Part shown: positions 1 to 39,077 of the stretch, piece by piece | Position numbering within the stretch: position 1 is the stretch's first letter | Layout of the letters: each line of letters opens with the position of its first letter | Source of the DNA: a virus | Length of the DNA stretch: 60,930 bases | Virus record (IMG/VR): IMGVR_UViG_3300032164_000015 | Span: 1-60,930 of that record | Strand: one strand, 5' to 3' | The notes under the pieces: model-generated | Seen by the model: the letters and a program-made list of their open reading frames with translations, nothing else | Database searches by the model: none | What the model was told of the DNA's origin: nothing | Translations under genes and position numbers: made by a program

Positions 1-1270
1 TCATCCGAATCATCTTCTCCCAAAGGAAGGTGCCGCCCTTCGAGGGGTCGTAGTTGTAGGTCGAGAAAGGGTGGCGCTTGTCACCGAAGAGCCGCTTGTC
101 TTGCTCGACGGCCTCGTGAATTTTCTCGCGCCGCTGAATGAACGGACTGATGGAAACCGTCGCACAGCCCGCGAGGTCGCGGATGGAGCCTTCGAGGTCG
201 CTCTCGAAGTCAGACCGGAAGTCCTCCGGCACGTCGAGAAGAACGGTGCCCTCGACCGGCTTCGCACGGAGAACCTCAACCTCCGAGGGTTCGAGAATCT
301 TCGAGGGCGTCTGCTCGTTGCCCACGATGACCTGAAACTTCACGTTGGAGAAGTTCTCAGGCTTCACGTCCCACAACGCGTAGTCGCGCACGAACACCGT
401 CGGGTCCTCGCGCGCGGCGCGCACGCGACGAGCGGTGAAGTCGTCGCTGGTCTTCTTCGAGGAGACGACGAACAACATCCCCGGCAGCTTCCCCTTACGC
501 TGGAAGCGGGACTTCATGCGGCGCTGGACCGAGTTGTAGATGACCTCGGCGTGGTCCACGTAGCCCATGCGCGCGGCTTCTTTGCCCTTGGTGGGCATGA
601 AGTTGGTCTCGTCGAGCAGGGCGGAGACGGCGTTCAAGCCGAGCGCGGAGGTGTCGGTGGTCGCGCGCGCAGCCACCCAGACGTTGTGCGGGAAGCGCAG
701 CTCCTTCTTGGTGGGCGTGAACGCGAAGTTCTTCTGAAAGTACGGACTCGCCTTGATTTTGGTCGCGATGTTCTCGAACGCGACCTTCACGGCCAGAACC
801 TCGTTCACCGAAAGACAGATGACGGCGATGTTCGAGTCCTTCGCGAGGCTGAAGGTGGCGTGGGGGTCGCGCAGGCAGGAAATCTCGTACAACACCCGGC
901 AGACGCCGATGCTTGCAGCGAACGTTTTTCCGTAGCCGATAGAGCCCGTCCAAACCGACTCGTGGTACCCGCCGGAGAACAGCTCCGTCAGGTCGTCGAG
1001 CAGCCTCGGGTAGATGCCTTCGCAGGTGTGACCAAGGAAGTAGGGGTCCTTGATGAACTGCTCCATGTCCACCGGCTGCGTCTTGTACTCGGACTTGTGG
1101 AGCGCCTCGTACATCCCGCCCTTGATCTGGCCCTCCTTCAGTTCAGCCATCAACACCTGAAGAGCCGCCTTCTCCTCGGGGTCGAGTCCCTCCATCTCCC
1201 TCTGGAGCAACTCCTCGATTTCCTCGACGGTGCGCTGGCTACGGCTCCGGCCACCGCTCTCGTGAATCAA
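1..1270 (-). CDS. terL: Terminase large subunit (3' end cut by window)
   Basis: ATPase motor that drives DNA into the prohead. The reading frame starts at a TTG (1270-1268) inside a TTGA overlap with the upstream stop, behind a GAGG ribosome site 7 bases away, and runs off the left edge after about 423 codons. Near residue 108 is a Walker A motif GSIGYGKT, and near residue 217 a Walker B stretch ALLDETNF with the catalytic Glu. This pair is typical of phage TerL ATPase domains. The C-terminal nuclease domain begins in the last visible residues and lies outside the window. An in-frame ATG at 1195 is an alternative start, but the overlap and ribosome site favour the TTG. Confidence 0.88.
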   Translation of the reverse strand, partial: MIHESGGRSRSQRTVEEIEELLQREMEGLDPEEKAALQVLMAELKEGQIKGGMYEALHKSEYKTQPVDMEQFIKDPYFLGHTCEGIYPRLLDDLTELFSGGYHESVWTGSIGYGKTFAASIGVCRVLYEISCLRDPHATFSLAKDSNIAVICLSVNEVLAVKVAFENIATKIKASPYFQKNFAFTPTKKELRFPHNVWVAARATTDTSALGLNAVSALLDETNFMPTKGKEAARMGYVDHAEVIYNSVQRRMKSRFQRKGKLPGMLFVVSSKKTSDDFTARRVRAAREDPTVFVRDYALWDVKPENFSNVKFQVIVGNEQTPSKILEPSEVEVLRAKPVEGTVLLDVPEDFRSDFESDLEGSIRDLAGCATVSISPFIQRREKIHEAVEQDKRLFGDKRHPFSTYNYDPSKGGTFLWEKMIRM

Positions 1271-2066: not shown

Positions 2067-3923
2067 TCAGGATTTTGAAGCCCACGAAGGCCCACCACCG
2101 GTCTCTGCTGTGGCGGGAACCCGCTTCATCATCGGGGCCATGCCTTCAATCATCGCCTCTTCGACCTGCTTCTGAACGTGCTTGGAGAACTCAGGACCTT
2201 CGGCTCGATGCTGAACCACGTTCTCGTCGTGGACCATGTGAACCATGCCGACGCGCGCGCCCTTCTCCAAGAGCATCTTGCCCCCGCTCATTGCCTTGCA
2301 GCGCTTGTAGACGAGAGGAAGGCTGTTCTTGAGGCCGTCCGCGCCTGAGCCCTGCACAGGCGAGTTGAAGAAGGCGTTGTGCTCCGTCTCTGGGTCCAAG
2401 AAGCGACGCCGACCCCAGATGGTCCACGCAGCCTTCTGCCGCTTCGCGTCTCGAATCGCCTTGGTGTGCCAGTCCTCGACGCCGCTGTACGCCTCGAACC
2501 ACTTGCGCCGGAACTTGATGGCCTGCCCCTCGGAGAGGGTCACGCCGTAGCCCGCGCGCGCGTAGAGCACCAGCTTGGGGGCCTGCATCCCGTAGATGAA
2601 CCCGAAGTTGACCGGCTTCGCTTGTTGGCGTTGGTCTTTGGAGACCAGCGGTTGCTCGATGCCTGAGAGCAGAGAGGCGGTCACCCGGTGGGCATCGTCC
2701 TTGCCCGGCCCAGCGTTGAAAACCGCGATGAGGCGCTTGTCCCCGCTGATTTCAGCGACCAGCCGCATCTCGATGTTCGAATAGTCGGCGATGGCCAGCT
2801 CGTAACCCTCACCCGCGACGAAGCAAGCGCGGAAGTCTTTGTCGCGGGGAATCTGCTGAAGGTTCGGCTTGGAAGACGAGTAGCGGCCTGCGCCAGTGAA
2901 CGGCCAGAACTCGGTGTGGATGCGACCGGTCTTCGGGTTGACGTGGTTGAGGTACTTCGCACCGAACGATTTCACGCGCTGTGCGACACCTCGGTACTCG
3001 ATGAACTTCTCGATGATGGGGTGAGAAGCGGCCAACATCGCCAGCGTCATCTCCTTGGTATCTTGCAGCTTGACGGTGTGGATCTGGTTCGACTCAGGGT
3101 CTCGAATTTTCTGCGTGACGCCCATCCGCCGCATCGACTCCAGCACCTGCTCCGGCGAGTCGAGATTGAAACGATGCTTTCGTGAAGCAGCGATCATCCC
3201 CGGAAACACGAGCTGGTTGAAGGGGCTCGGCAACTCAGCCAAGAGGATAGCTTCCAGCGCCCGCTGCCGACCCGCGTTGGTAATGGCGAGCTTCTTCCAC
3301 TTCTCTTGGTCGATTCCGAACCCGTTCAGCTCGATGGCGGCTTCCGGAAGAATCGCGTTGAACTCAATGACAGCGACGCGGACGAGGTTCTCTTTGATGA
3401 GCTTCGCGCGCAACGAATCACGCAACGCAGGGAGGTGCGTGATGTCTTCGGCGGCGTAGTCGAGTTGGTCTTTCGTCAGCTCGGGAAGCGTCCAGTCCGA
3501 GCCGCCCAATTCGGGGGCCTCGGGACCGATGTTCAGCTCACGACGATAGAGCGAGTACAGGTCGTGACCGACGTGCTTGTACCCGTTGTAGAGAAGGTTC
3601 GAGGCACGGAAGGTGTCGAACACGCGCTTCAGTTCGAGGTCGAAGTGCCAGAGGAGCCACTTCTGATCGAACTTGAGGTTCTGGCCGATGGTGAGCCCGG
3701 TCGTCTTGTCGAGAGCTTCCACGACCGGCCCCAGCGTGCCCGTCTTGAACAGGTCGATGACGTAGCGCCCGACCCCGGTGTTGATGGAGCAGAGACGCAC
3801 AAGACCGTCGCGCGGGTTCAGCGCGGTGGTCTCAAGGTCGAGCGCGTGCCAAGGCTGTGCCTCCACCTCACGGGCAATCCGCCCGAGCGCTTCAGCCGAC
3901 GTGACGTAGTCGTAACTAAGCAA
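2067..3923 (-). CDS. polA: DNA polymerase I, family A, with 3'-5' exonuclease
   Basis: Replicative or repair polymerase. Residues 1-190 carry a DEDDy exonuclease: D29/E31 in DLETT, D86 in NLKFDQ, and Y156 with D160 in YAAED. The polymerase part has motif A ADYSNIEMR (D380), motif B from R432 to Y444 ending NFGFIYG, and motif C VHDE (D566). At 618 residues it is the usual size for a phage Pol A without a 5' nuclease domain. TTG start at 3923 with a GAGGGGG ribosome site four bases upstream. The exonuclease acidic residues are all present, so proofreading is expected. Placement beside terminase genes rather than in the replication block at 14-30 kb is unusual. Confidence 0.95.
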   Translation of the reverse strand: MLSYDYVTSAEALGRIAREVEAQPWHALDLETTALNPRDGLVRLCSINTGVGRYVIDLFKTGTLGPVVEALDKTTGLTIGQNLKFDQKWLLWHFDLELKRVFDTFRASNLLYNGYKHVGHDLYSLYRRELNIGPEAPELGGSDWTLPELTKDQLDYAAEDITHLPALRDSLRAKLIKENLVRVAVIEFNAILPEAAIELNGFGIDQEKWKKLAITNAGRQRALEAILLAELPSPFNQLVFPGMIAASRKHRFNLDSPEQVLESMRRMGVTQKIRDPESNQIHTVKLQDTKEMTLAMLAASHPIIEKFIEYRGVAQRVKSFGAKYLNHVNPKTGRIHTEFWPFTGAGRYSSSKPNLQQIPRDKDFRACFVAGEGYELAIADYSNIEMRLVAEISGDKRLIAVFNAGPGKDDAHRVTASLLSGIEQPLVSKDQRQQAKPVNFGFIYGMQAPKLVLYARAGYGVTLSEGQAIKFRRKWFEAYSGVEDWHTKAIRDAKRQKAAWTIWGRRRFLDPETEHNAFFNSPVQGSGADGLKNSLPLVYKRCKAMSGGKMLLEKGARVGMVHMVHDENVVQHRAEGPEFSKHVQKQVEEAMIEGMAPMMKRVPATAETGGGPSWASKS

Positions 3924-3945: not shown

Positions 3946-4563
3946 CTACTTGTTGACGGTCTTCCGACCCAGAGCGGTCAGCCGGTAGCTCCCCGGTTCA
4001 GGCTTCTCCACCAGTCCGGCGCGGACAGGCCGCCGCAGGCTGTTTCGAGCCCACGAATTGGCCTTCTTCACCGACACCGACGCGGTCTTGAACGCCTCTG
4101 CCGCGAGCGCCTCGATGGTGCGGACCTCGCGGTCACCCTTCACCTCGAAGCAGCCGAGCAGCAGCTTCTCCTTCTTGTTCAGGTCTTCGAACGTGAGTTC
4201 CTTGATGGCAGGCCCAGACTGACCAGACACCGGCTTGTGCTTCGCCTTCGTCTTCGCCTTCGCGGGCTTCGCCTTGATGGTCTTCTCGACAGCCTTCGCG
4301 CGCTTCGTGTACTTGCGCTTCTTCTTGGGCTCCGACGCGGAAGCCTCAACCTTCGCGCGCTTCGTGTACTTGCGCTTCTGCTTCGGCTGCTCAACGAGCG
4401 CCAGCACGGGCGCGGGCGCGGGGGTCTCAGCGGGCTTCGCGACCTCTGCTTCAGGGGCGAGCAACTGCGCCGCTGCGTGGTCCATCCCCTTAGACCGCAG
4501 GAGATTTGCGGCCTTCAACAGCTCCGCAGAAAGTGATTCGGTCTGTCCGGTCGTACCGCTCAT
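3946..4563 (-). CDS. Lysine/arginine-rich DNA-binding protein with C-terminal winged-helix-like domain
   Basis: 205 residues in three parts. The N-terminus (1-55) is helical. Residues 60-120 are extremely basic and contain two near-identical KRKYTKRAK motifs about 20 residues apart, followed by KAKPAKAKTKAKHK, similar in composition to histone H1 tails and to bacterial histone-like proteins. The C-terminal 80 residues (from about 122) look like a compact helical winged-helix fold. It probably binds DNA non-specifically through the tail and more specifically through the end domain. It is transcribed from a promoter with a palindromic operator at 4629-4664. Function is inferred from composition only. 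Confidence 0.7.
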   Translation of the reverse strand: MSGTTGQTESLSAELLKAANLLRSKGMDHAAAQLLAPEAEVAKPAETPAPAPVLALVEQPKQKRKYTKRAKVEASASEPKKKRKYTKRAKAVEKTIKAKPAKAKTKAKHKPVSGQSGPAIKELTFEDLNKKEKLLLGCFEVKGDREVRTIEALAAEAFKTASVSVKKANSWARNSLRRPVRAGLVEKPEPGSYRLTALGRKTVNK

Positions 4564-4732: not shown

Positions 4733-6262
4733 CTACTTTTCCAAGTCAGGAACGACGGGATCGAGGTCAGGCTCGTCTATCCCTGTGGCTCGCGTGAACT
4801 GATCGGGCAGGGCGTCGATGGCAGAAACCTCGGACTTCAAATTCACCATCACTTCATCGAACCAAGCTTGAACGTGGGAAGGCTGGTTCACGAACGATAC
4901 GCGACGGCCCTTGCCGACCTTCTCGGTAGATTCGCCCTTGGCAGCGGCAGCGGCGGCAGCAGCTTTCACGGCGGCGGCCTTCTTTTCTGCGGCATCCGCC
5001 GCAACCATGAGCCGGTCGAAGTACCGGTCGTCATCAATCGAAAAGTCCCAACCATCTTTGGTCCAAGTTCGAGTGTAGATCTGCCGCTGCTGATGGGACG
5101 ACTTTCCATGCGCGTCCACCTTCGCCTCGACGTGGCTGTCCATGAGGGCCAGCGCGTCCACGTCCCGATTGGAAATCAGAGCCTTGAAGTTCATCGGAAG
5201 AACCTCGTGCAGCTCGGTCGTCTTCGCGTGGTCGATGAATCGCGCAGTCTTGTGGCCACGAGACTCGCTCCGCAAAATCAGCTCGTCCAAATCCTCGACG
5301 TACGCCATCACGACGTTGATTCGGTACCCGCGCGCTTTCAGGTCGGGGAAGAACTTCTTCTCCATCCACTCCAGATTCTGACCCGTGCCTGCGAGCACGA
5401 AGTTGTAGCCCTTCTCCTTCGCCTCGTTGACGAGTCGATTGTTCATCTGCAACGTCTCGGCGACGACGGACGAAGCTCCACTCCGCACCTTCAGTTCCGC
5501 CGCCTTCTGGAACTCCGGCATCTCCACCAGAATCTCATCCGGGTCGATCTTGGCCGCGTTGTGGTAGTCACCGCCCTGACGCGTGGACTTGCCAGCCGCA
5601 GGCGGACCCATGATGAACGTGAAAGTTCGCTCGCCCTTCGGAACCGGGTGAACGCCCCGGAAAACTCGCTCACGAATGGGTTCGAGAATCTTCTCCTGCA
5701 TCTCCAGTCGCTCAGGAGCCCAGCTCCCGTCACGGAAATGCTGAGCCATCGTGCTCTTCGGGATGTCCGGGTGGCTATCGGCGTACTCCGAACCAACCTT
5801 GCGCCAAGCGCCGTCGGCACGCTTCTGGTACTCGCCGTCTTTCCACTTATGAATGTCGCCTACCTCGGCGGGAATACCACGCGACTCCAGCGCGACCTGC
5901 GTCAGGGCCTGAGGAACCACGCTCTTGAAGTACGCGTCGAAAAACGCCAACACATCGTCATCGTCGTCCCAGTCCGCAAGCAGCTCGCCCATCGACAAGA
6001 GCTTCAGCTCCTTCACGTTCTTCAGGGTCAGCGGTTCGAAAACGCAAAGGGGCCGTCCAGCGTAAGAAGGCAACAGCGCGAAGCCACGCTCACCTCGGTC
6101 TTCCAACTCGCCTTCCTCATACCGCGTAGGAGTGTTGAACCAGTTGGTCACCCACTCCAAGCCGTCGGGGCCGTACTGCGGCGCGAACGCGACGTATCTC
6201 CTCGGCGGACCCCTCAAATCCTTCTCGGTGACGCGATAGAGCTTGGTGTCTTCGGGTCGCAT
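4733..6262 (-). CDS. Zeta-toxin-type P-loop kinase in a virion-style multidomain protein (509 aa)
   Basis: Residues about 205-380 form a zeta-toxin-like kinase: Walker A GPPAAGKST (219-227), IDPDEI with the probable catalytic Asp at 240, and a basic SRGHKTARF stretch near 334. Zeta toxins phosphorylate UDP-N-acetylglucosamine and block cell-wall synthesis. Before it, residues 133-157 hold a W-K-D-G-x-Y-x-K-x-A-D-G-x-W-type motif shared with the N-terminus of the giant protein upstream. The C-terminus has an alanine-rich helix and an acidic tail. The ATG at 6262 is one base after the upstream stop; a longer frame to 6349 would overlap that gene and is not preferred. No partner antitoxin is evident. 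Confidence 0.8.
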   Translation of the reverse strand: MRPEDTKLYRVTEKDLRGPPRRYVAFAPQYGPDGLEWVTNWFNTPTRYEEGELEDRGERGFALLPSYAGRPLCVFEPLTLKNVKELKLLSMGELLADWDDDDDVLAFFDAYFKSVVPQALTQVALESRGIPAEVGDIHKWKDGEYQKRADGAWRKVGSEYADSHPDIPKSTMAQHFRDGSWAPERLEMQEKILEPIRERVFRGVHPVPKGERTFTFIMGPPAAGKSTRQGGDYHNAAKIDPDEILVEMPEFQKAAELKVRSGASSVVAETLQMNNRLVNEAKEKGYNFVLAGTGQNLEWMEKKFFPDLKARGYRINVVMAYVEDLDELILRSESRGHKTARFIDHAKTTELHEVLPMNFKALISNRDVDALALMDSHVEAKVDAHGKSSHQQRQIYTRTWTKDGWDFSIDDDRYFDRLMVAADAAEKKAAAVKAAAAAAAAKGESTEKVGKGRRVSFVNQPSHVQAWFDEVMVNLKSEVSAIDALPDQFTRATGIDEPDLDPVVPDLEK

Positions 6263-6263
6263 G

Positions 6264-9200
6264 TCAGAGCCCCATCGGTTTGACGTACTTGTCGTAGATG
6301 GCTTGCGCGGGACCGGTCTCAACGACCACAAAGTCCTCAATCGGCACACCGTTCATCGCAGTGAGCTTCTGCTTGTGAGCCTCTCTGATGAGTTCAACGC
6401 GATCAGACTCACTCTGCGTCACGATGCGAAGAACACGCGCCCCGTGAACCCCGTTGAAAAAATCCGTCTCGTTGGACGCACAGGCATCGTGCTTGTCGTA
6501 AGTGGAAGCCTTCTGGGCGGTGACAGCCGCAGCGTCTCGTCGTTTGATGACTTCAGCGGTTGTCTTGCGAGTGTCCCACTCGTCTTTCCCTGAAGCCTTT
6601 CCGAACGAACCGTACGCATCACCGGGGAAGCTCATCACGTCGAGACGATCCAGCTCGTCCGCCGCAAGAATGTACTTGTACCGGCCCGACACGTTCCCTT
6701 GGTTGTTGGCGTGAAACAAACTCTGTTTGGCGCTGTTGGTCGTAATCAAGCGCCACATGCCGGTCTGAGCGCCTCCGGACGCGAGATCCGGCTCTACCGA
6801 TGAGCCCGCAGGTCCGCCCGCCTTGGCGGTACCCGATAGGACACGCTGATTGATACCTGAAGGCCCGCTGTCGCGGAGCGCCTGAATGATGAACTTGGGC
6901 GTGGAAGCAGAGGTCTCAAGAAACTTGAGAACCGGCTCGCCAGCCTCGTCCTTGGGAAAAGTCTTCCAACGATCTGGTACGAAGAAACTCTTGATACCGG
7001 GCGTCACCTCGGTCTCAGACGCGGTGAAGTACACTTCAGGGACCTTGGCCAATTTCGCTTTGGCCTTGAGTTCCGCAGCAGTGAAATGCTCCGGCTGCAA
7101 GCCACGCTCGATGGCCGGAGCCGCGCTGAACAAGATTTGATGGAGCCGCTGAATCTCGCGATCTTCCGGCGTCGGCTCGTGCATCACCGCATCCCCGAGA
7201 CCGGGCGAAGCTTTGTCGAGAAGCCCCTTCAACACGTCGGTTATTTTCTCGTCAGGACCGAGTTCCAGTTCCGCGACACAGGTACCCGCGAACGACCAGT
7301 AGCTGTGTTCGTCAGACATCATGCGCAGTTTGTGCTTGCCGTCGCTCCACTCGCGCGCCGAGACCTCCAACGAGTGCGCCCCGGTTTGGATGTTCGAATC
7401 GGTCTCGGCATCGTAAGTGCCTGTCCAAAAACCGTGTTCCACTCCCGTACCTGAGTGAAGCAGATTCTTGTAGCCGTAGGTTTTGCCGTTGGTGACCACA
7501 GCGTCCCGCAACTTGAAGGTGACCATCAGCTTGGTCACGCCGGTCGGACTCGTGACGCGCTTGATGTTGAGCGTTCCTGTTGAACCCCAAAGCGCAGGAC
7601 CATCCGTCGGGAAGGCGCGCCCAACAAGTCCCAGCTTGGCGGTCTTGGTGTTGTTGATGTCCTTGAAAGACTGCGCAATGGGTACCGCTGGCGCGTGCGA
7701 AGGGAAGTACGACGGAGTGCCAGAGTGGGGAGCGATCTTGTCGGCTGTGGACGCTTGCTCGTCCGGAGTGATGGTCACCTGCTCGGAAACGAAGGCATTC
7801 GCGATGGCGGCCTTGGACATCGGGAGCAGGAACTTGGTCGAACCGTCACTGCCCTTTTTCTCCACCGCAGGACCCAGAGGCGTCAATCCGAACTTGGTCA
7901 GGAACGCCTGAACGGCGGGCAGTCCTCCGGCGACGTACTTGATGGCCTGCTTCGTGTCATCCTCTGTCGTGTTGCCGTCCGCATCCTTCGTTTTCCACGG
8001 GCGGATCTTCACGTTCGCCTCTTCGGCCCCCTCGGTAGCGGTCTTCTTGACGGTCTTGATGATAGGCACAGGCTTTGCGCCTTCTGCCTGCCAGCCCGTA
8101 ACGAAAGAGAACCGGCCTTTCTCTCCGGTCTTCTCTCGGTACGTCTCGGCCAGCATCTGCTCGACCTGATACTTGGTCGTGTTCTTGCGGTTGAGCGCGT
8201 CCTGAACGAACGCGTTCTGCATGAGCAGGTTGCCGGGATGTGTCGCCTCCGCGACATGCCGAACCATCACATCGAAGTCGAGCGCGGAGATTTTGGCGAG
8301 GTCCTCGAAGACAGCGCCGCCTGCGAGCACTTCCGCCGGAACCGCCGTGAGCTTCTCCCAGACGGGGTCGGTGTCGGGACGAAGAATCGGTTCCGTGCCG
8401 GAAGGGAGAATCCACGCCAGCACGCCCTTCTTGGCGAGATTGGGACCGGTTGGTGCGAGAGACGCCGGGACATTTGCGGCGACCTGAAGTGCGAGCTGGG
8501 CCGTGGCGGCGGCAGCGGCAATCTCCTCTGGCTTCGCAGGAATGACGACGGTCGGAGTGGGCTCCGTGAGTTCGTCCGGAGCCACCGCTGCGGGCGCGGG
8601 GGTGCTCGCGGAGATGGGAGCTACCGCTGCATTCCAGCCGCCGAAGTCCTTCAGCTTCTTCGCGACGTTCTTCACCCGCTTGAGGGCGGTGGTGTACGGC
8701 GTGCCGGTCAGGTACGCGATCTGCGCCGCCGCATCGTTGATGTTGTTGTTGTAGGCGGCGAGCTTCTGAAGCGCGTCGGCGTAGACACTGTCGGGCGACA
8801 TTCCAAGAGCGGATGCGACCTTTTTGACGGTCGAGTACGGAGGCGGAGTGAACCCAACCGGTGGCGGGACAGACTTCTGACCGGGAAGCGGAGCAGCGAC
8901 GACCGGCGGCGGGGCCGAAGGAACCGAAGGCACTTGCGGAAGGGACTGCGCGGTGGCCGCAGGTGCGGTGACAACCCCACCCTCGGGCAACCAGCCAGCG
9001 GAGAAGGTGAACTTGCCCTTCTTCTTGGTCCGCTTCTCGTACAGCCCGGTGATGAACGTCTCGAAGTCGGCCCGGATGTTCTTCTTACGCGCGAGCGCCT
9101 TGTCGTAAATGGCGGCGGAAACGGAGATGCCGCCCGCAGCGGTGGAGACGTAGGGCTCCAGTGCTTTGACGTACTGCTCGTCGGAGATCTTCTCGACCGC

Positions 9201-12200
9201 CTCGATGGCCGCCTTCATCACGGTCGGGTCGAAGCTCTGCTTGTTATCGGCGAAGTCGCCCCAGAACTTGTTGTAGTAGGGCGGCTGCTCGTTGTACTGC
9301 GCGTTCGGATGGTAGTCCGTCGAGAGGACATCGCCCTCAGGAGTGGAACTCGTCCACTTCGGATTCGGCAGCAGGTACTTGAAGCCCTGCTCCTTGTCGA
9401 TGCCGACCACCGAACCGTTCGGAAGAATCAGCAAGTTGCCGGGGTGCGTGTCGTGCTGTGAGAGGAGCCAGTCGAGGATGTGCTCGTCAGCCACGTCCTT
9501 CTTCTGCGCAGCCGTGAGACTCGCGGGACTCATCCCGGAGAGCGACTTCAGGTTGTCGCCGAGCCACGGCTGAAGCGTGGCGGGCTGAATGGCACCTGCG
9601 TTCGTCTTCGCGAACGTCGCAGCACCGACTGGCGGCGTGGAGGGCTTCACGGCCTGCCCGACGGTCGCGAAGAGAACCTGCGATGCGACCTTCCACGGCT
9701 CCGGCTTGCCGCTCGACTTGTTGGTCGCCAGCTTCAGCAGGTACTTCTTGCCGTTGTCATCAGTGAAGAAGTGCTTCTCACCTGCGCCGCCGATACCAAC
9801 GGCTTCGCCTTGGTGATTCAGGGTCGCGAGCGAGGGAAGCTTCGGTGGAATCAGCACGCCCGCAGCCAAAGTGCTGGCCGGACCTGTGGCGGCGAACTTG
9901 AACGGTGAGCCTTGAACCGTCGAAAAGAACTTCTCGAAGTCCGAGCGCAGGTTCTCCTTGCGCTTGATGATCTTGAACAGCGTGTGCGCCTTCCCGGTGG
10001 GGTCGCTGTCCATCGCGTCGATGTACGGCTGAACGAGCTTGACGTAGTCCTGCTCGGAAACCGCCTCGATGGCCTGAATGAACGGGAGCGCCGAGTTCAG
10101 GTCGAACTTGAGGTGACCTTTGGCGTGTGCCGCGTAGAGCGTGTTGTAGACCGGCGGCGAGTTGTTGGGCTTGTAGTCGAGGGACAGCTCGTCATCGCCA
10201 ATGAACTTGAACGCCTGCTCTTTGTCGATACCAACGATGTCACCGTTGCTGCGGACGACGAAGTTGCCCGCCTTGGAGTCGTGGTTCGACACCAGCCAGT
10301 CGAGCACGCGCTCGCGCTGAAGCTGAAGAATCTGCTTCGGCGTAAGGTTGATGAGCGGGACCTTGGACAGATCTGACACAACGTCCGGAACCATCGGTTG
10401 GAGCGAGCCGTAACCGTCGTCGGAGTTGCCGGTCGCCTGCACTGGAACGTACGTAGTCGCGTCTCCAAGTAGGGCGGCGATATTCGAGGCCACCTGCCCT
10501 CCGAACGCACGAATCTTGGCCGCGTCCTTCTTGTGGAGGAACAGGTTCCCGCTCACATCCTTGAGGAACACCTTCGGCTTGTTCCCGCCGAGCTTCGCCT
10601 TCGCATCGCCCGCCGGGCTGAGCGCCGACATCGGGGGAATTGACGGAAGAGCAGTACCGGCGACAAGGGAAGGAGCCGGAAGGGGCGTCGGAACCGCAAT
10701 CGGCGCGACAGGCGCAAGGGTGACTGGGGGTGGACCGGCTTCCGGCTTGTCGATGAAGTCGTCGAGGTCGAACCCGTCCGCGTACAACGCCTGCTTGATG
10801 ACTTGGGTGGCGAAAACTTCGGCCTTGGCGGGTGACCACCCCGCCGCCTTCAGGAAGTCGATGACCTGCTTGGCAGGGGTCACCCCGGTGGGCTTGCCTT
10901 GTTGAAACGCCTGCCACAGTCCCAGAACCTTCGCTTGGTCGGAGTCCGGTCCGTACCCGAGGACGGCGGCCCAGTGCAAAACCTTGATGTTGGTGGGGGC
11001 GGCGTTGCCCGCCAGAGCCCCCTGCGTGCCCGCCGGAACGACGACGGGAGCTGGAACCGAGGGAGGGGGCTCCTCGGGAGCCACAGGCTCACCATCGGGA
11101 CCGTGGGCGAAGCCAAGGCCGCTCGAAGCACCAGCCACGAAGTCGGCTGCGTCGAAGCTGGGGTGCCTGAAGACCTTGCCGACGAGGTCGGTCAGAAACG
11201 CTGAACGGGCGGCGACCGTGGCGGCGAATTCCGCATCAGGGACTTGACCTTCGAGTTCGGCGAGTTCCTTCGCAGCCCCTTTGACAGCCGCCAAGCCGTC
11301 CACCAACGAGGGCGCAATGACGCTCTGTTTCTTGAGGTGGTTCCGCCAAAAGTTGAGGGCCTTCGCCTCGTTCGAGTTGGCGGAGAATCCGAGTGCGGTG
11401 GCGAGGTCCCGCACCTGAGTTGAAGTGGGCGCAAGGAAGTCGGAGAGGTCCGGAGCAACTGCCGGGACAGCCGGGAACCCGGCGAAAGAGGCGGCGTCCC
11501 AGCCGGGGACCGCCTTGGCGTCCTTGATGGTCTTCTGCACGAACTGATTGAGGGCCTTCGCCGCGTCGGAGCTTTGTCCGGACGGAAGGTCCCCCGTGAG
11601 TTCTTTCACGGTCGCCGCGATGGCGTACGTGTGCTTGTTCTTGAGGTGCTTCTGCCAGACGGCGAGCACCTTGGCTCCGTCGGAATCCGGCGCGTGCCCG
11701 AGCTTCCCAGCGAGGTCCAGTACCAGCGGGTCGGACGGGGCTGGGAGAGCAGCAAGAGCCGACGTGGCAACGGGCGCGGGCGCGGGAACGGCAGGAAGCG
11801 CGGGCGCTGCGGCAGGGATAGCGGGAACAGGCTTCGCCTTCGCCTTTTTGGGCGGAGCTGCGGAGACGGAGGCAGTAGCGGCGACAACCGGGGCAGACAT
11901 CACGGGGCCTGCGCCGCCGATGAACGTGACGGTCAAGCCGCTCTCGAAATCGCCCTTGACGGTGATGAGCCCCTTTGCCTTCGCAGCGTCGATGAGTGCC
12001 TCGACCTCGGCAATCGCGGCTGCGTTCTTCTTGCCGAACTTCACCCGGTACATCTCCGCGACCGTGTCGGAGTTGATGCCCGGCTTCTTGTGGAACTGCG
12101 CGAGAGCAAACGCCTGAGGAGAACCTGCGGAGTACCCCAGCTTCTGGAGGGCGAAGTCGAGGGAGTTGGAAGTCTCGGCGGGAGAAGGGGGGCGCGCGTT

Positions 12201-12650
12201 GGAGGTCGGCCCTTCGGTGGGGGTCTGGGCCGCAGCGAGCGCGGCGGCCTCCGCCGCAGTGGCTTTCTGGAACCAGCCGTTCCCGAACTTCTTGAGGACT
12301 CCGGTGTACCAGTTCGCATTCTTCAGGAGAGCTGCGCGCTTCTTGGGGTCGTTGAAGCCCGCGTCGTTCAGGAAAGACATCAGCTCATCGACGTTCGCTT
12401 TCGCTCCGAAGTTGGATCCTTTTTCCTTCGGGGTGTGAATCGTCTTCTTGAAGAACGGTTGCATCCCCAGCGGCGTCCCGGACGGAACGTAGATCCACTC
12501 GCCGTTGGCCTGCTTCTGCACACGACGGTCGCCGTGAGACGACACCCAGCCGGGGGCAAGTCCAGTCGCCTCTTCCAGCCGCGCGGTGAAAAACGCACCC
12601 AGCGAGATGGTCGGCTCTTCGTTTCTCCAAAAGTCTCGACCGCTGCTCAC
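6264..12650 (-). CDS. Giant polyvalent protein with tandem kinase-like domains and repeats (2128 aa)
   Basis: A multidomain protein of the kind phages package or inject. GTG start at 12650 behind GGGAGG. Residues 40-57 carry a GDRRVQKQANGEW motif. A helical module (L-G-Y/F-x-P-D-S-x-x-A-K-x-L-x-x-W) recurs near 167, 313, 416, 558 and 1277, separated by Pro/Ala linkers. Two kinase-like domains follow: about 690-910 with catalytic loop NHDSKAGN (789-796) and metal motif GIDKE (807-811), and about 955-1205 with GKKYLLKL (967-974), QHDTHPGN (1065-1072) and GIDKE (1083-1087). A third, decayed copy keeps ATHPGN near 1469-1474. The last 200 residues may be an ADP-ribosyltransferase-like fold. The kinase substrate is unknown. 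Confidence 0.85.
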   Translation of the reverse strand: MSSGRDFWRNEEPTISLGAFFTARLEEATGLAPGWVSSHGDRRVQKQANGEWIYVPSGTPLGMQPFFKKTIHTPKEKGSNFGAKANVDELMSFLNDAGFNDPKKRAALLKNANWYTGVLKKFGNGWFQKATAAEAAALAAAQTPTEGPTSNARPPSPAETSNSLDFALQKLGYSAGSPQAFALAQFHKKPGINSDTVAEMYRVKFGKKNAAAIAEVEALIDAAKAKGLITVKGDFESGLTVTFIGGAGPVMSAPVVAATASVSAAPPKKAKAKPVPAIPAAAPALPAVPAPAPVATSALAALPAPSDPLVLDLAGKLGHAPDSDGAKVLAVWQKHLKNKHTYAIAATVKELTGDLPSGQSSDAAKALNQFVQKTIKDAKAVPGWDAASFAGFPAVPAVAPDLSDFLAPTSTQVRDLATALGFSANSNEAKALNFWRNHLKKQSVIAPSLVDGLAAVKGAAKELAELEGQVPDAEFAATVAARSAFLTDLVGKVFRHPSFDAADFVAGASSGLGFAHGPDGEPVAPEEPPPSVPAPVVVPAGTQGALAGNAAPTNIKVLHWAAVLGYGPDSDQAKVLGLWQAFQQGKPTGVTPAKQVIDFLKAAGWSPAKAEVFATQVIKQALYADGFDLDDFIDKPEAGPPPVTLAPVAPIAVPTPLPAPSLVAGTALPSIPPMSALSPAGDAKAKLGGNKPKVFLKDVSGNLFLHKKDAAKIRAFGGQVASNIAALLGDATTYVPVQATGNSDDGYGSLQPMVPDVVSDLSKVPLINLTPKQILQLQRERVLDWLVSNHDSKAGNFVVRSNGDIVGIDKEQAFKFIGDDELSLDYKPNNSPPVYNTLYAAHAKGHLKFDLNSALPFIQAIEAVSEQDYVKLVQPYIDAMDSDPTGKAHTLFKIIKRKENLRSDFEKFFSTVQGSPFKFAATGPASTLAAGVLIPPKLPSLATLNHQGEAVGIGGAGEKHFFTDDNGKKYLLKLATNKSSGKPEPWKVASQVLFATVGQAVKPSTPPVGAATFAKTNAGAIQPATLQPWLGDNLKSLSGMSPASLTAAQKKDVADEHILDWLLSQHDTHPGNLLILPNGSVVGIDKEQGFKYLLPNPKWTSSTPEGDVLSTDYHPNAQYNEQPPYYNKFWGDFADNKQSFDPTVMKAAIEAVEKISDEQYVKALEPYVSTAAGGISVSAAIYDKALARKKNIRADFETFITGLYEKRTKKKGKFTFSAGWLPEGGVVTAPAATAQSLPQVPSVPSAPPPVVAAPLPGQKSVPPPVGFTPPPYSTVKKVASALGMSPDSVYADALQKLAAYNNNINDAAAQIAYLTGTPYTTALKRVKNVAKKLKDFGGWNAAVAPISASTPAPAAVAPDELTEPTPTVVIPAKPEEIAAAAATAQLALQVAANVPASLAPTGPNLAKKGVLAWILPSGTEPILRPDTDPVWEKLTAVPAEVLAGGAVFEDLAKISALDFDVMVRHVAEATHPGNLLMQNAFVQDALNRKNTTKYQVEQMLAETYREKTGEKGRFSFVTGWQAEGAKPVPIIKTVKKTATEGAEEANVKIRPWKTKDADGNTTEDDTKQAIKYVAGGLPAVQAFLTKFGLTPLGPAVEKKGSDGSTKFLLPMSKAAIANAFVSEQVTITPDEQASTADKIAPHSGTPSYFPSHAPAVPIAQSFKDINNTKTAKLGLVGRAFPTDGPALWGSTGTLNIKRVTSPTGVTKLMVTFKLRDAVVTNGKTYGYKNLLHSGTGVEHGFWTGTYDAETDSNIQTGAHSLEVSAREWSDGKHKLRMMSDEHSYWSFAGTCVAELELGPDEKITDVLKGLLDKASPGLGDAVMHEPTPEDREIQRLHQILFSAAPAIERGLQPEHFTAAELKAKAKLAKVPEVYFTASETEVTPGIKSFFVPDRWKTFPKDEAGEPVLKFLETSASTPKFIIQALRDSGPSGINQRVLSGTAKAGGPAGSSVEPDLASGGAQTGMWRLITTNSAKQSLFHANNQGNVSGRYKYILAADELDRLDVMSFPGDAYGSFGKASGKDEWDTRKTTAEVIKRRDAAAVTAQKASTYDKHDACASNETDFFNGVHGARVLRIVTQSESDRVELIREAHKQKLTAMNGVPIEDFVVVETGPAQAIYDKYVKPMGL

Positions 12651-12714: not shown

Positions 12715-13494
12715 CTACGCTGTGCCCGCCTTCTTGGGCTTTGGAGCGAGGTTCTCTGCGGCTTTCACGGCAGCGTCATTGAGAATCGGCCCCATGAACT
12801 CGTTCACGTCCGCACCTGACTCGCGGCAGTAGTTGAGAACCTTGTCGAGCGCCTTCTTCATCGCCTTGTCCATCTGGACGTAGACGTGCTCGGTTTTTCC
12901 GAACGTGAACACCATGAAGGACTGCTGCACGGTGTCGCCGAACTTCGCGAAGAGCGTCTGGATGATGGTGCCGAGGTCCTCGACGGTCTTCGCCTCCTTC
13001 GCCTTCTCGTCAAACTCCGCGTGCATCTCCTTCGGCAGCGACTGCTTCATGCCGCGCTTCACGTCGCCAACGAGCTTCTGGAACTGCCGGGTATCCACGT
13101 AGCCCATGAGCTGCTGGAGCGCGTCCTTGCCGTACTTGTCGGCCATCTCTTGGTAGAGCTTGAGGAACTTCTCCGGGTTCATCTTCCCGCCGATGACGTT
13201 CAACCGTACGGTCTCGAACTTCTGGAGGTCCTCGTCCTGCCACCGCTTGCCCACGAGCACGGTGCAGGGAACCTCGTCGAGCCCTGCCTCCTGACACGCC
13301 TTCCAGCGATGCTCGCCGCCGATGATTCGAAAGAGCCCGTCCTGAACAGCGACGACCTGAATCGCGGCGGTGCAGCCGTTCTCTTTGATCTCATCGACAA
13401 GGCGCGTAAACATCGCCTCGTCCATGTGTTGAGGGTTCCAAGGGTTCGCCACCAGCTTGTCGATGGCGATGTGTTTCAGCTCATGCTTGCTCAA
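12715..13494 (-). CDS. ParB/Srx-fold nuclease-like protein (259 aa)
   Basis: The N-terminal 100 residues match the ParB N-terminal fold: a LVANPWNPQ start, an expected I-Q-V-V-A strand, and the hallmark IIGGEHRWKA with conserved Gly-Gly-Glu-His-Arg. In ParB relatives this pocket binds CTP or, in phage homologues, can act as a nuclease. The C-terminal 150 residues are helical and do not show the ParB helix-turn-helix, so plasmid-type centromere binding is not supported. TTG start at 13494 with GGAG eight bases upstream; a good -10 (TATGAT, 13529-13524) lies just before it. Likely a DNA-processing or packaging accessory. Confidence 0.8.
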   Translation of the reverse strand: MSKHELKHIAIDKLVANPWNPQHMDEAMFTRLVDEIKENGCTAAIQVVAVQDGLFRIIGGEHRWKACQEAGLDEVPCTVLVGKRWQDEDLQKFETVRLNVIGGKMNPEKFLKLYQEMADKYGKDALQQLMGYVDTRQFQKLVGDVKRGMKQSLPKEMHAEFDEKAKEAKTVEDLGTIIQTLFAKFGDTVQQSFMVFTFGKTEHVYVQMDKAMKKALDKVLNYCRESGADVNEFMGPILNDAAVKAAENLAPKPKKAGTA

Positions 13495-18645: not shown

Positions 18646-18806
18646 AGATTCTCCAAGGTTGACTGCTCGAACGGATCGGGCGCTTCGCGGGTATGGCCTT
18701 CAGAGCAACGCCACACCCACCGCATCGGAAACGACAACAAGTGACGCGGGTCCAGCTCCGCTTGAGCCGGAAGACCGCAGATACCGCAAGGCGAGACCTC
18801 CGGAGC
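18642..18806 (-). CDS. Zinc-ribbon frame following recA, start unclear
   Basis: After the recA stop, the -1-shifted frame encodes about 54 residues with CGICGLP and, 25-30 residues on, WRCSEGHT, a plausible zinc ribbon, ending in a GTGA overlap with the next gene. No ATG, GTG or good TTG precedes the first Cys pair outside recA; the frame opens only at a TTG at 18992 deep inside recA, whose translation looks like non-coding shadow. It may be translated by frameshifting from recA, by a rare start codon, or be a remnant. The coding look is good, the start is not. Confidence 0.45.
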   Translation of the reverse strand, partial: APEVSPCGICGLPAQAELDPRHLLSFPMRWVWRCSEGHTREAPDPFEQSTLENL

Positions 18807-20329
18807 TACGCCACTTCGGTCGCCGGAGTCTCTGGCAGCGGTTCTGGAACTGGCTGCAACCCGAGGTCCTCCACCGGTTCGTTGACGAGCTTCAGGCAGG
18901 TCTGCTTCACCAGCCGGTAGAACTCCTTGTCGGCTCTCATCCTCTTGTCGATGAGCCCCTTCGAGTCGTAGCGCGTTCCGAGGCAGGTCCAATGTGAACT
19001 TTCCTTGACGATGAGGCCGAGAGCCTGTGCTTCCGCCATCACGAACTCTTCGTCAAGTACGTCACCGATCAGCTTGGTCGTACCGTCCACCATCGCCATC
19101 TTGAACGTGTCGGTGCGCTTCGCCCCACCCGCCTTGCTCTTCTCGATGTGGAAAGGAAACTCGACTTCGAGAGGAATCGGATGGTCCTCGTCGGTCTTGT
19201 CGAACTCCCAGACGCCGGGTTTCATCTTCAACTCGACGGAGGCTGCGAAACCGGGAGCCATGCCGCCCGGCTGAACTTCGGGGTTGCCGAACATCACGCC
19301 GATTTTCATGCGGATCTGGTTCGTCAGGAAGACCGTCGGGCGACGCTCACTGTGGAGCCCCGCCATGTTGAGCCCCGAGACGAACTTGCGAACGCCTCTG
19401 TTGACGATCTTGGCGTTCCCTCCCATCGTCTCCTTCTCGGTGGACTCCTCGATTTCCTTCGCGGGTGTGAGGAACGCGATGGAGTCGAGCACGATGACAT
19501 CGCAATCCCCGGAACGTACCAGCGCGTCGCCGATGTCGAGAGACTGCTCGGCGTACTCCGGCACCGATAGCAGAAGCTTGTCGAGGTCGATGCCTTGCCG
19601 CAGTGCCCACTTCTTGTCGAACGTGCCTTCCACGTCGATGAAGGCGCAGACCGCCTCACGGTACTTCCGACAACCGCAAGTCGGTTTGATTTCTTCACCG
19701 AGAATCGGCACTCGAATCGTCGCGTGCTCATCCTCGGGGTCGGGCTGCGTCTCGACACGAAGCAGCTCCTTCCACTTGTCCCCGTGCGCGTACCAACGCG
19801 CGACAGGCGCGGAGACCCACTCCTTCTTGGTCTTCTTCTCCTTCGGCTCCGGCTCGGCCTCTTCCTTCTCCGCCTTGGCCTTCTTGCCACGCTTCTTCGA
19901 GGGAATGACGGTGACCTCGCCCGTGGTCTCGTCGATGACCTCCGCGTCTTCAACCTCGACTTCGACGAGCTTGGCCCAATGCACGTACTCCCAACAGTTG
20001 GAGCACTGGTGCTGCGCCTCCGCGATGGTCTTGAACAGGAGCGTGGTCTTGCAGGACGACTTCATCCCGTAGATGACGTTGACGCGGCCCTGCGGCCAGC
20101 CGCCGCAGAGCGCCTTGTCCACCTGAAACACCCCGGAAGGGATGCGGAAGGCTTTGGCCACGCGCGCGTCGGAGGCGCTGGTGAGGATGAGGTCGCCGTG
20201 CTTCTTCTTCAGCTTCTGAAAAAGCTCGGACGCCAACAGGTGCTGAATGCGCACCGGGTTGCGCTTCGCCGGAGTTTTCTTCTCGTCCTTCGGCTTCTCG
20301 TCCTGCTCATCCTTGCTTTTTCGGGCCAT
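18806..20329 (-). CDS. recA: RecA recombinase with unusual P-loop and cysteine-bearing insertion (507 aa)
   Basis: Strand-exchange ATPase. Conserved parts: Walker A GMKSSCKT (88-95), the glutamate strand FIDVEGTFDKKWA (230-242), Walker B DVIVLDSIAFL, and a very RecA-like L2 block TNQIRMKIGVMFGNP. Two oddities: the Gly before the Walker A Lys is Cys, and some 100 extra residues lie between Walker A and the FIDVEG strand. That insertion has CSNC (109-112), a lysine/glutamate-rich linker, and CGCRKYREAVC (218-228), suggesting a zinc site. The N-terminus is basic and disordered. Total length 507 against about 350 in bacteria. Confidence 0.93.
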   Translation of the reverse strand: MARKSKDEQDEKPKDEKKTPAKRNPVRIQHLLASELFQKLKKKHGDLILTSASDARVAKAFRIPSGVFQVDKALCGGWPQGRVNVIYGMKSSCKTTLLFKTIAEAQHQCSNCWEYVHWAKLVEVEVEDAEVIDETTGEVTVIPSKKRGKKAKAEKEEAEPEPKEKKTKKEWVSAPVARWYAHGDKWKELLRVETQPDPEDEHATIRVPILGEEIKPTCGCRKYREAVCAFIDVEGTFDKKWALRQGIDLDKLLLSVPEYAEQSLDIGDALVRSGDCDVIVLDSIAFLTPAKEIEESTEKETMGGNAKIVNRGVRKFVSGLNMAGLHSERRPTVFLTNQIRMKIGVMFGNPEVQPGGMAPGFAASVELKMKPGVWEFDKTDEDHPIPLEVEFPFHIEKSKAGGAKRTDTFKMAMVDGTTKLIGDVLDEEFVMAEAQALGLIVKESSHWTCLGTRYDSKGLIDKRMRADKEFYRLVKQTCLKLVNEPVEDLGLQPVPEPLPETPATEVA

Positions 20330-31566: not shown

Positions 31567-33504
31567 CTATCCGTTGCGTAGGTACTTCACGAAGCTGGTG
31601 GAGACGACACGCACGAGCCCGTCCCCCAACCGCTCAGTTTCCATCCGTCGCCAGTTGGCTGGTGGTCCCAACATGAAGGAGAGCTGCGTGTCCTTCATCT
31701 CCTGCCCGATGACGATGCCGGTGACGTTCATCCCCTGCCTGCGCGCGAAGCGGATCTCGTCCCGCGCGTAGGTCATCAGCGTCTTGGTGGCGAAGCGGTT
31801 TCCCGTCCGGGTCGCGTGCGACGGCGCTCCGTCCGTGATGATGATGATTTGCTTCGCTTCGTTGCCCTCCTCCATGAAGCGAACAGCCACCCGAAGCGCG
31901 AGGTGAAGCGGCGTCGCACCCGCCACCTCCGTGTCGTCCGAGGTCAGGTTCAGCGCGCCCGGCGCGAACCGGGTGATGTCGATTTCGCCCATCTTGAACG
32001 ACTGGAATCCCCAGACGCGGAAGTCCACGAACGGGAACTTCAACGCCGACTCCAACGTCCGGCACGCACGCTCCGCCTGCGCGGTCTTCTCGCCCAGCAT
32101 CGAACCCGAGCGGTCCACGAGCACCAGCACCTTGAAGCCCCGGCCCGACTCCTCAGTCCGGAAGCACGGCACTGGCTGCCGCGACACCACGCCCTCGATG
32201 TACGCCGACACGTCGATTTCGCTGCCGGTCTCGTGCAGCATGAACCTTCGCCTTCCGAGCACCCGGTAGAAGACCGACTTCAACCGCCGCGCCGCGCTGC
32301 GGTCTTCTTCGTGTTCCTGCCCGAGCGCGCGCTTCACCTTCGCCGTCCGAAGGTTCACCTTGCCGAAGGCGTTCTTGGTGGCCCAGCCGTCGTGCCCCAT
32401 CTGCTGGCCGAGCGTCTTCAACGCGCGCGTGACCACCTCTGCCATCTTCGACTCCGAGGCCGTGAGGAACTCCTCCAGCTTCGCGTCGTCGCGCGTGTCC
32501 ATGTTCTGCACGAACTCAGCGGCGGCTCGACCTCGGTCCTTCTCGTCCTTCGTCACCCGCTTGTCCGGCACCACGTCGTCGCGCCACGAGTAGAGCGCGG
32601 AGGGACAGCCCATCACTTCAAGCAGACGCTCGAACGCCTTCGTGCGCGCGCCCGCGTCCACGGGAACCGTACGGTCCTCGGGTGTGGTCGGAGCTTCAGG
32701 CGTCGCAGGGGCGCGGTTCTTGAGCCGTTGGAGCGCCTGAGCGGCGAGGCTCTGGGTCTGCGGGTTCTGCGGCACTCGACGAGGCTGGGCTATCTCGGAG
32801 ACGAACTGCTGCATGAGCCACTTGGCGACCGCCAGCGTCGCCGCGAAGCCCCGACGCTCCACCTTCAGCAGCGCGTCTTCCATCGCAGGTCGCAGGTAGT
32901 CGTACGGTCCGGGCGGAGGCTCGACCTTCGCCGAGACGACGCACAGGTACGTCGAAGGGCAAAGGTGCGCGCGCCCGATGAACTTCTGCACCATGTGTTT
33001 GTGCATCGCCTGCATCTCGATGAAGGAGCCCGGATACAGCAGCGCCCAGAGCGACTCGACGCGCGCGTCTTCGAGGATACCGATGATGACGGAGAGCAGC
33101 TCTTTGAGATGATCCGCGTGGTGGTCTTCCAGCGCCTGACCTTGCTGCGCGAACGACTTCTTCACCTGCTCAACGTAGAGCCGGATGAACGCGACCTTCC
33201 CCTCGATGCTCGACTGGAAAAGGATGTGAGCCAGCTCGTGCTCGACGATGCGATAGAAGAACGGGTTCTTGAACGGTGCGAGAATCTCGTGGCCGTCAGT
33301 GCTCGGGAAGTTGCCTTCCTTCAGCCACAGTCGGCGCTGTGTCAGCCCAGAGAACGTCGCGACCGTTTTGTATGCCGCCCCGCGCGCATCCTGCTCCAAC
33401 CCTCGGCGATAGAGGGCTTGAAGATCCACTGTTCGATTGGGATTGAAAATCGAGCCCTCAAGCTCAATCGCTTCGTCCCCCTCGACCAGCTCTATCTCCG
33501 TCAC
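31567..33504 (-). CDS. CobT-like protein: HExxH domain plus von Willebrand A domain (645 aa)
   Basis: The N-terminal region has VEHELAHILF with an HExxH zinc-protease signature at 89-93. The C-terminal 200 residues form a vWA domain with a full metal-ion-dependent adhesion site: DRSGS (near 458), the Thr in AGATPL and the Asp in TDGAPS. This layout matches phage and bacterial CobT-like partners of MoxR AAA+ ATPases. Overlaps the AAA+ gene start by ATGA. In cobalamin synthesis such a pair inserts cobalt, but no other cobalamin gene is here, so a chaperone or protein-remodelling role is more likely. Confidence 0.85.
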   Translation of the reverse strand: MTEIELVEGDEAIELEGSIFNPNRTVDLQALYRRGLEQDARGAAYKTVATFSGLTQRRLWLKEGNFPSTDGHEILAPFKNPFFYRIVEHELAHILFQSSIEGKVAFIRLYVEQVKKSFAQQGQALEDHHADHLKELLSVIIGILEDARVESLWALLYPGSFIEMQAMHKHMVQKFIGRAHLCPSTYLCVVSAKVEPPPGPYDYLRPAMEDALLKVERRGFAATLAVAKWLMQQFVSEIAQPRRVPQNPQTQSLAAQALQRLKNRAPATPEAPTTPEDRTVPVDAGARTKAFERLLEVMGCPSALYSWRDDVVPDKRVTKDEKDRGRAAAEFVQNMDTRDDAKLEEFLTASESKMAEVVTRALKTLGQQMGHDGWATKNAFGKVNLRTAKVKRALGQEHEEDRSAARRLKSVFYRVLGRRRFMLHETGSEIDVSAYIEGVVSRQPVPCFRTEESGRGFKVLVLVDRSGSMLGEKTAQAERACRTLESALKFPFVDFRVWGFQSFKMGEIDITRFAPGALNLTSDDTEVAGATPLHLALRVAVRFMEEGNEAKQIIIITDGAPSHATRTGNRFATKTLMTYARDEIRFARRQGMNVTGIVIGQEMKDTQLSFMLGPPANWRRMETERLGDGLVRVVSTSFVKYLRNG

Positions 33505-38406: not shown

Positions 38407-39077
38407 GGCGCGCCTCCGATGCGGCGAACCACAGGTCCACCGTCGAACACGAGCTTCATGTCGTCGGGTAGGGTCTGTAGACCGCCCTTCTTGATGTCCG
38501 TCGCGCAGCCGACCCACAGCTCTTCGAGTACCTCCAGCGGAAGGCGGCTGTTCCGCCTCTCTTGGTGCAGCTCGGCATCCCAGACCTTCCGCGACATCCG
38601 CAACTCAGGCAGCAACTTGCCGTCCAGCCGCAGTTCCTTCCGCCCGCCGAAGCTGCTCTCCAGCGTGCGCAGCCAGACGCGAACCAGATCCGCTCGCACG
38701 CACTCCGCGTACTCAATGCTCGTACCGTAGGCGGAGTCCTCACCGCCCGCGACGAAGCACGCTTTCTCGAAAGGCTCGCGCGAACAGCTCAGCTCCAGCG
38801 CCTTCAGCAGCGCGCTCTGCTCCTCAGCGCGAGGCGTGCCGACCTCTGGCTTGAAGTGGACCTGCTTGTTCGAGCTGAAGCACTTGCCCGCGTGTCCCGG
38901 CAAGAGCGAGCACGAGTACGCGGTCACCGGCAAGAACCCTCCGCAGTACACACGCACGTCGAAGTAGCCGTCCGTGTGAGCGACCAGTCGCGTGCCCTCG
39001 CGTGCGCGCGCGAGGAGGAACAGCCGCAAGTCGTGGGCGAGCTTCTGTTCCTCAGGCGTACGGTCGTTGTCGTTCAT
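38403..39077 (-). CDS. Hypothetical protein (224 aa), Ku operon
   Basis: Cys and His residues are scattered (VYCGGFLP, YSCSLLPGHAGKCF, LELSCSREP, KACFV, YAECVRAD), of which the C-x3-PGHxGxC part looks like a small zinc knuckle. The C-terminal half is helical with VLEELWVGCATDIKKG. Overlaps the Ku gene by four bases. No family recognised. Confidence 0.65.
   Translation of the reverse strand: MNDNDRTPEEQKLAHDLRLFLLARAREGTRLVAHTDGYFDVRVYCGGFLPVTAYSCSLLPGHAGKCFSSNKQVHFKPEVGTPRAEEQSALLKALELSCSREPFEKACFVAGGEDSAYGTSIEYAECVRADLVRVWLRTLESSFGGRKELRLDGKLLPELRMSRKVWDAELHQERRNSRLPLEVLEELWVGCATDIKKGGLQTLPDDMKLVFDGGPVVRRIGGAP

What the first reader, a model, noticed from the sequence alone, without database searches (positions are those of the whole stretch)
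6264..12650. Giant phage protein with tandem kinase-like domains and a decayed third copy
Two regions (about residues 690-910 and 955-1205) each contain a catalytic-loop motif of the form H-D-x-x-x-G-N followed 11-15 residues on by V-G-I-D-K-E, and each ends in a similar R-x-D-F-E-x-F helix. A third copy keeps only A-T-H-P-G-N and the closing F-S-F-V-T-G-W. The pattern fits the PI3/4-kinase or HipA-like kinase fold. Two active-site sets in one chain, plus a dying third, suggest internal duplication and selection for dosage or different targets. If the protein is injected, it could phosphorylate host targets at once.
Basis: partly seen in the sequence, partly recalled or inferred. Interest (0 to 1): 0.75.

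Follow-up and report, generated by a model that had tools for sequence, protein, structure and literature searches.

The report
Phage giant protein: twin kinases plus ADP-ribosyltransferase
A 2,128-residue phage protein carries two intact kinase-fold domains and ends in an enzyme domain shaped like the DNA-modifying toxin DarT; relatives across many bacterial phyla fuse the same parts to a phage head protein, so it is probably an effector carried in the virus particle and injected at infection.

Summary
The gene lies on the minus strand (12650..6264, 2,128 aa). Residues 675-915 (K1) and 941-1217 (K2) are two homologous domains, 33% identical (E 8e-36). AlphaFold predicts K2 as a kinase fold (pLDDT 95.5), and Foldseek retrieves PknA, CtkA, HipT and PI3K. 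Lys, catalytic Asp, Mg-binding Asn and the DFG-like Asp are kept in both copies across a family of about 120 phage and prophage domains that has no curated name in Pfam or PHROGs. The 'dying third copy' is misread: ATHPGN aligns with a C-lobe helix, not the catalytic loop, and that segment is a constrained C-lobe tail (dN/dS about 0.2). Relatives have MuF head domain + kinase + DarT-like or ADPrib_exo_Tox ART, next to portal genes. In the window's clade the order is ParB, giant, zeta-kinase, PolA, TerL. Best reading: a new variant of the MuF/polyvalent injected effectors. No biochemistry or virion data exist here, and the window's protein itself has no detectable MuF domain.

The parts
6264..12650 (-). 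Giant protein gene, GTG start, 2,128 aa, stop at 6264-6266
   Evidence: orthologs L006 (64% id) and L005 (52%)
10731..12173 (-). Low-complexity Ala/Pro linkers with several diverged helical repeats (LGxxPxSxxAxxLxxWxxxL type, about residues 160-640)
   Evidence: read from the translation; least conserved part (dN/dS 0.35 vs L006)
9906..10628 (-). Kinase-fold domain K1 (residues 675-915): K707, D791, N796, D809; DxK in place of DxH in the catalytic loop
   Evidence: family HMM 260.5 bits; K/D/N/D kept in 11/11
9000..9830 (-). Kinase-fold domain K2 (residues 941-1217): K973, H1066, D1067, H1069, N1072, D1085, R1188
   Evidence: family HMM 290.5 bits; AF2 pLDDT 95.5; Foldseek; conservation
8097..8339 (-). 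Third, partial copy: only the C-lobe tail (residues 1438-1518), no N-lobe, no catalytic loop
   Evidence: 18.6 bits, model 192-258; purifying selection
6267..7673 (-). C-terminal DarT-like ADP-ribosyltransferase region (residues 1660-2128), invariant E2061
   Evidence: AF2 pLDDT 91.9; Foldseek top 7 all DarT; hhalign to DarT P 9e-5 with E2061 opposite the DarT Glu; A6
4733..6262 (-). Zeta-toxin-like P-loop kinase gene directly downstream (likely ATG at 6262)
   Evidence: PF06414 E 1e-15; also found in the clade records G001-G004; start by alignment to the L006 ortholog
2067..3923 (-). DNA polymerase family A
   Evidence: PF00476 8.4e-67
1..1195 (-). N-terminal part of the terminase large subunit, cut by the end of the contig
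   Evidence: 60% identical over 429 aa to the G003 terminase
12715..13494 (-). ParB-like nuclease gene directly upstream, seen at this place in relatives of the clade
   Evidence: phrog_26387 1.4e-60

Best explanation
The protein is a virion-borne, multi-enzyme effector of a tailed phage. It has two catalytically complete kinase-fold domains (K1, K2) in tandem and a C-terminal DarT-like ADP-ribosyltransferase, joined by Ala/Pro-rich linkers and helical repeats. Made late and carried in the capsid, it would enter the cell with the DNA; K1 and K2 would use ATP to modify host (or defence) targets while the ART uses NAD to modify a macromolecule, possibly nucleic acid. K1 and K2 are kept because they have different jobs (DxK against DxH loops). 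Shown by computation: sequence, fold prediction, conservation, architecture, gene order. Inferred: catalysis, targets, packaging and injection.
For: Kinase fold. Active-site residues: K973 98%, D1067 98%, D1085 98%, N/Q1072 97% over 122 domains; 11/11 K1 and 9/10 K2 in two-copy proteins; dN/dS 0.11 and 0.15 against L006. ART. Virion link: MuF fused N-terminally in single-copy relatives with the same kinase and the DarT-like domain (L036, L096) or ADPrib_exo_Tox (L075); L002 has VG15, kinase and ADPrib_exo_Tox and lies between portal and scaffold/capsid genes, annotated as minor capsid protein; portals are common just upstream. In the window's clade the gene lies about 5 kb upstream of TerL on the same strand. 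Published precedent: polyvalent proteins (PMC5512222), MuF toxins (PMC5576092), head-packaged ARTs (PMC9503650).
Against: No MuF or other head domain is detectable in the window's protein and none passes the cut-off in 18 records of the clade and its near relatives. Its neighbours are replication genes as well as TerL, so it could be an intracellular, non-virion protein. No Pfam kinase or ART model reaches its cut-off. Foldseek TM-scores are modest (0.3-0.5 for the kinase, at most 0.28 by query length for the C-terminal region), so substrate class cannot be read off. No expression, virion or biochemical data.
Confidence: 0.6

Rival explanations
1. The kinase domains act on the protein's own ART in the phage-producing cell: a built-in safety catch that holds the ART off until injection, as kinase-fold enzymes are known to modify ART effectors elsewhere (from general knowledge).
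For: Kinase and ART are fused in most of the family, with two unrelated kinds of ART; no small immunity-type ORF follows the giant gene (the zeta gene comes directly after).
Against: Pseudanabaena phage Pan1 has MuF + the same DarT-like domain with no kinase; small kinase genes without the DarT-like domain occur in Bacillota and candidate phyla (L110, L111, L118). So neither needs the other.
Confidence: 0.15
2. An intracellular late protein, not packaged: kinases, ART, ParB nuclease and zeta-kinase act together in the infected cell against the host or competing phages.
For: No MuF in this clade; gene flanked by ParB-like nuclease and, two genes on, PolA.
Against: Architectural relatives outside the clade are MuF fusions beside portals; TerL follows on the same strand.
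Confidence: 0.22
3. The kinase folds are not kinases in function (pseudokinases, or AMPylation/other transferases) and serve as structural or other modules.
For: The kinase fold is known to support other chemistries (general knowledge); one K2 (L035) has lost Lys and Asp; N is replaced by Q in 26% of the family.
Against: Lys, both Asp and Asn/Gln nearly invariant family-wide, with purifying selection on both copies.
Confidence: 0.2

Closest known systems
Mycobacteriophage 'minor capsid and ADP-ribosyltransferase fusion' proteins (prophiFSQJ01-1 gp54, McProf gp54) and Onyinye gp16
   Same: Homologous kinase domain in one polypeptide with an ART; gp54 lies between portal and scaffold/MCP genes
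   Different: One kinase copy (unannotated in the records); in gp54 the ART is of ADPrib_exo_Tox type, not DarT-like, and the N-terminus is a VG15 domain
MuF polymorphic toxins of temperate phages (PMC5576092)
   Same: Relatives have MuF + C-terminal enzyme domain; ARTs are among the listed toxin domains
   Different: The window's protein has no MuF; two kinase domains; the word kinase does not occur in that paper's main text; no small immunity ORF seen here
Polyvalent protein kinases (PMC5512222)
   Same: Kinase domains in giant, multi-domain phage proteins thought to be injected
   Different: Those lack the C-terminal subdomain and have an insert between catalytic His and Asp; here His and Asp are adjacent and a helical C-lobe is present
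HipA/HipT/CtkA and PI3/PI4 kinases
   Same: Fold; DxHxxN loop in K2 and a second Asp in VGID
   Different: No curated cut-off reached; K1 has DxKxxN; no HipB partner; fused to ART
DarT DNA ADP-ribosyltransferase
   Same: Fold match; Glu aligned
   Different: PF14487 not reached by the window's protein; large extra N-terminal beta-rich part; no DarG macro domain in the neighbours scanned

Membership tests
PI3/PI4 kinase (PF00454) | Pfam gathering score 27.1 bits | tested here: not met
   17.3 bits, E 0.0048, residues 1054-1099 only
PI3/PI4 kinase (PF00454) | DxHxxN catalytic loop and downstream metal-binding Asp | tested here: met
   K2 DTHPGN and VGID; K1 has DSKAGN, so Lys replaces His there
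HipA-type kinase | HipA_C (PF07804) match | tested here: not met
   none for the window's protein; 29/80 relatives at E<=0.1, best 2.5e-6
HipA-type kinase | HipB-like antitoxin next door | tested here: not met
   neighbours are ParB-like nuclease and zeta-kinase
Protein-kinase-like fold | Two-lobe fold with Lys/Asp/Asn/Asp set | tested here: met
   AF2 pLDDT 95.5, Foldseek PDB, conservation
Protein-kinase-like fold | ATP-dependent phosphotransfer | not testable with these tools
   needs enzyme assay
MuF polymorphic toxin | N-terminal MuF domain | tested here: not met
   not in the window's protein; met in relatives L036, L096, L075
MuF polymorphic toxin | C-terminal toxin/enzyme domain | tested here: met
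   DarT-like region at the extreme C-terminus
MuF polymorphic toxin / polyvalent protein | Presence in virion and injection | not testable with these tools
   inferred from relatives' head domains and gene order
Polyvalent-protein kinase of PMC5512222 | Loss of C-terminal subdomain; insert between catalytic His and Asp | tested here: not met
   HD adjacent; C-lobe helices 187-270 of the model
DarT | PF14487 match over cut-off | tested here: not met
   no match for the window's protein; one of 47 relatives at E 0.0041
DarT | DarT fold | tested here: met
   seven best PDB matches are DarT, best prob 0.99 but E 0.011
DarT | Catalytic Glu | tested here: met
   E2061 invariant in 47/47 and opposite the DarT Glu (QAEFLV) in hhalign, P 9e-5, prob 59%; kinase control 0.1%
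DarT | ADP-ribosylation of DNA | not testable with these tools
   needs assay

The most novel reading that the evidence does not exclude
A widespread, unnamed class of injected phage effectors in which a distinct kinase family (neither HipA nor PI3K nor the published polyvalent kinase) works with a DarT-like nucleic-acid ADP-ribosyltransferase on one chain. Phages would thus deliver, at infection, a version of the enzyme fold that bacteria use against phages, with tandem specialised kinases in the window's clade.
Probability: 0.3. Interest if true: 0.8.

Novelty: new variant of a known kind. Interest (0 to 1): 0.6.

Why it matters
It links two enzyme folds better known as bacterial toxin or anti-phage enzymes (HipA-type kinases and DarT) in one probable phage effector found from Bacillota to Desulfobacterota, with single-copy kinase relatives in lab-grown phages of M. 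smegmatis, so packaging and activity are directly testable. It also gives an identity to C-terminal extensions of phage head proteins that are now unannotated: records labelled only 'ADP-ribosyltransferase' or 'head morphogenesis' carry an unannotated kinase or DarT-like domain.

Tried and rejected
Translation of the stated coordinates on the + strand gives no ORF. ATHPGN as a catalytic-loop relic: rejected. PDB sequence searches with the kinase and ART profiles gave nothing significant; the top hit of the first, a bacterial effector, is E 0.44 and was not followed. PADLOC on the ART family: no DarT. MuF in the clade's records: none over the cut-off. The careful tree did not finish, so the quick tree was used. 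Terminase search of 18 records with phrog_2 missed the window's fragment; direct comparison found it. Literature searches found no description of this kinase family, but the library holds only open-licence papers.

Full report
What is there. The finding gives no strand; the ORF is on the minus strand, 12650..6264, GTG start, 2,128 aa, preceded by GGAGG. The two motif sets are present at residues 790/806 and 1066/1082. K1 and K2 align over 251 columns at 33% identity, E 8e-36.

Kinase fold. No Pfam or PHROGs model passes its cut-off for the protein; the best is PI3_PI4_kinase at 17.3 bits against a cut-off of 27.1. A profile of K1, K2 and three phage domains finds relatives in 89 viral-contig stretches and 41 bacterial-genome loci. 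In 122 distinct domains the Lys (973), the first Asp (1067) and the second Asp (1085) are each conserved in 98%, Asn/Gln1072 in 97%, Gln1088 in 98% and Arg1188 in 99%. Of 80 members scanned, 29 match HipA_C, 16 PI3_PI4_kinase, 7 ABC1, 5 Fam20C and 2 LepB_N at E<=0.1, all kinase-fold families as far as I know. AlphaFold2 on K2 gives pLDDT 95.5, pTM 0.93. Foldseek lists kinases or kinase complexes: PknA, CtkA (TM 0.51), PI3K, RIO2, HipT; among viral models Onyinye's 'ADP-ribosyltransferase' is first (TM 0.73), followed by a portal protein and PI3K/PI4K-domain proteins of haloarchaeal viruses and uncultured phages.

Two copies. In two-copy proteins, K1 keeps K/D/N/D in 11 of 11 and K2 in 9 of 10 (the exception, L035, has Thr and Asn for Lys and Asp). 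K1 always has DxKxxN; K2 has DxHxxN (Tyr for His in L008). K1s and K2s each form one group against the other, SH-aLRT 99, and K2 sits among single-copy proteins of related phages (quick tree). The pair is therefore old and specialised, not a fresh duplication. dN/dS against L006 is 0.11 for K1 and 0.15 for K2 (synonymous divergence is above 1 per site, so these are rough).

The third copy. The family HMM finds only its positions 192-258 at residues 1447-1515 (18.6 bits); AEATHPGN lies over the helix YAEAAAKK. There is no N-lobe and no catalytic loop. The segment is 65-71% identical to orthologs, dN/dS 0.19-0.21, and against L005 it is more conserved (65%) than K1 (55%) or K2 (58%). It is a retained C-lobe tail, probably with a structural role, not a dying kinase.

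The C-terminus. Residues 1660-2128 belong to a roughly 500-aa region that follows the kinase in most of the family, with six invariant columns including E2061. AlphaFold2: pLDDT 91.9, pTM 0.90. The seven best PDB matches are all DarT (best E 0.011, prob 0.99). Profile comparison with 19 DarT sequences fetched here gives P 9e-5, prob 59%, pairing E2061 with the DarT Glu; the kinase profile as a control gives 0.1%. PF14487 itself is not reached except weakly in one of 47. I therefore call it DarT-like, not DarT.

Architecture and context. L036 and L096 have MuF + kinase + DarT-like; L075 has MuF + kinase + ADPrib_exo_Tox; L002 has VG15 + kinase + ADPrib_exo_Tox. Portals lie upstream in many of these; gp54 of prophiFSQJ01-1 lies between portal and scaffold. 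Pan1 has MuF + DarT-like without kinase, and small kinase genes without the DarT-like domain exist, so the modules are separable. In the window's clade the order is ParB-like nuclease, giant, zeta-kinase, PolA, TerL, portal, major head protein (seen through to the head protein in G003). In the window, the zeta gene begins directly after the giant's stop and a TerL fragment, 60% identical to that of G003, fills 1195..1. The contig ends there, so the head genes are off it.

Mechanism and limits. The best reading is an injected multi-enzyme effector: tandem kinases with distinct catalytic loops plus an ART. Fold, conservation and gene order are shown by computation; catalysis, substrate, packaging and injection are inferred. 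The chief weakness is that this clade has no MuF domain. Compared with published work, the general idea (head-packaged polyvalent effectors, MuF toxins, phage ARTs) is known (PMC5512222, PMC5576092, PMC9503650); this kinase family, its tandem form and its pairing with a DarT-like domain were not found in the papers searched or in the family libraries.

Noticed in passing
L093, L095, L096, L097, L098, L100, L104, L106: A prophage block with portal and MuF-kinase-DarT-like gene is about 95-97% identical DNA over up to 16 kb in Desulfosarcina, Desulfocarbo, Desulforhopalus, Desulfofustis, Desulfobulbus and Ectothiorhodospira (another phylum), which suggests a very broad-host mobile phage.
   Followed up: partly
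window 18806-20329 (-): RecA/UvsX-like protein of 507 aa with a charged, Cys-containing insertion (HQCSNC...CGCRK) of about 100 residues after the Walker A region; possibly a zinc-binding insert, no intein motifs seen by eye.
   Followed up: partly
window 39074-39916 (-): Ku-like DNA-end-binding protein (PF02735, 3.5e-52) in the phage.
   Followed up: no
window 31567-34361 (-): AAA ATPase (CobS-like) next to a VWA-domain protein, a MoxR/VWA-type pair of unknown role in phages.
   Followed up: no
window 3946-4563 (-): 205-aa protein with a weak Mrr_N-like C-terminal end between the zeta-kinase and PolA genes (E 0.0017, below cut-off).
   Followed up: no
ON968452.1 Pan1_15 (L156:3827-6610): Cyanophage 'head morphogenesis protein' that ends in an unannotated DarT-like domain.
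   Followed up: yes
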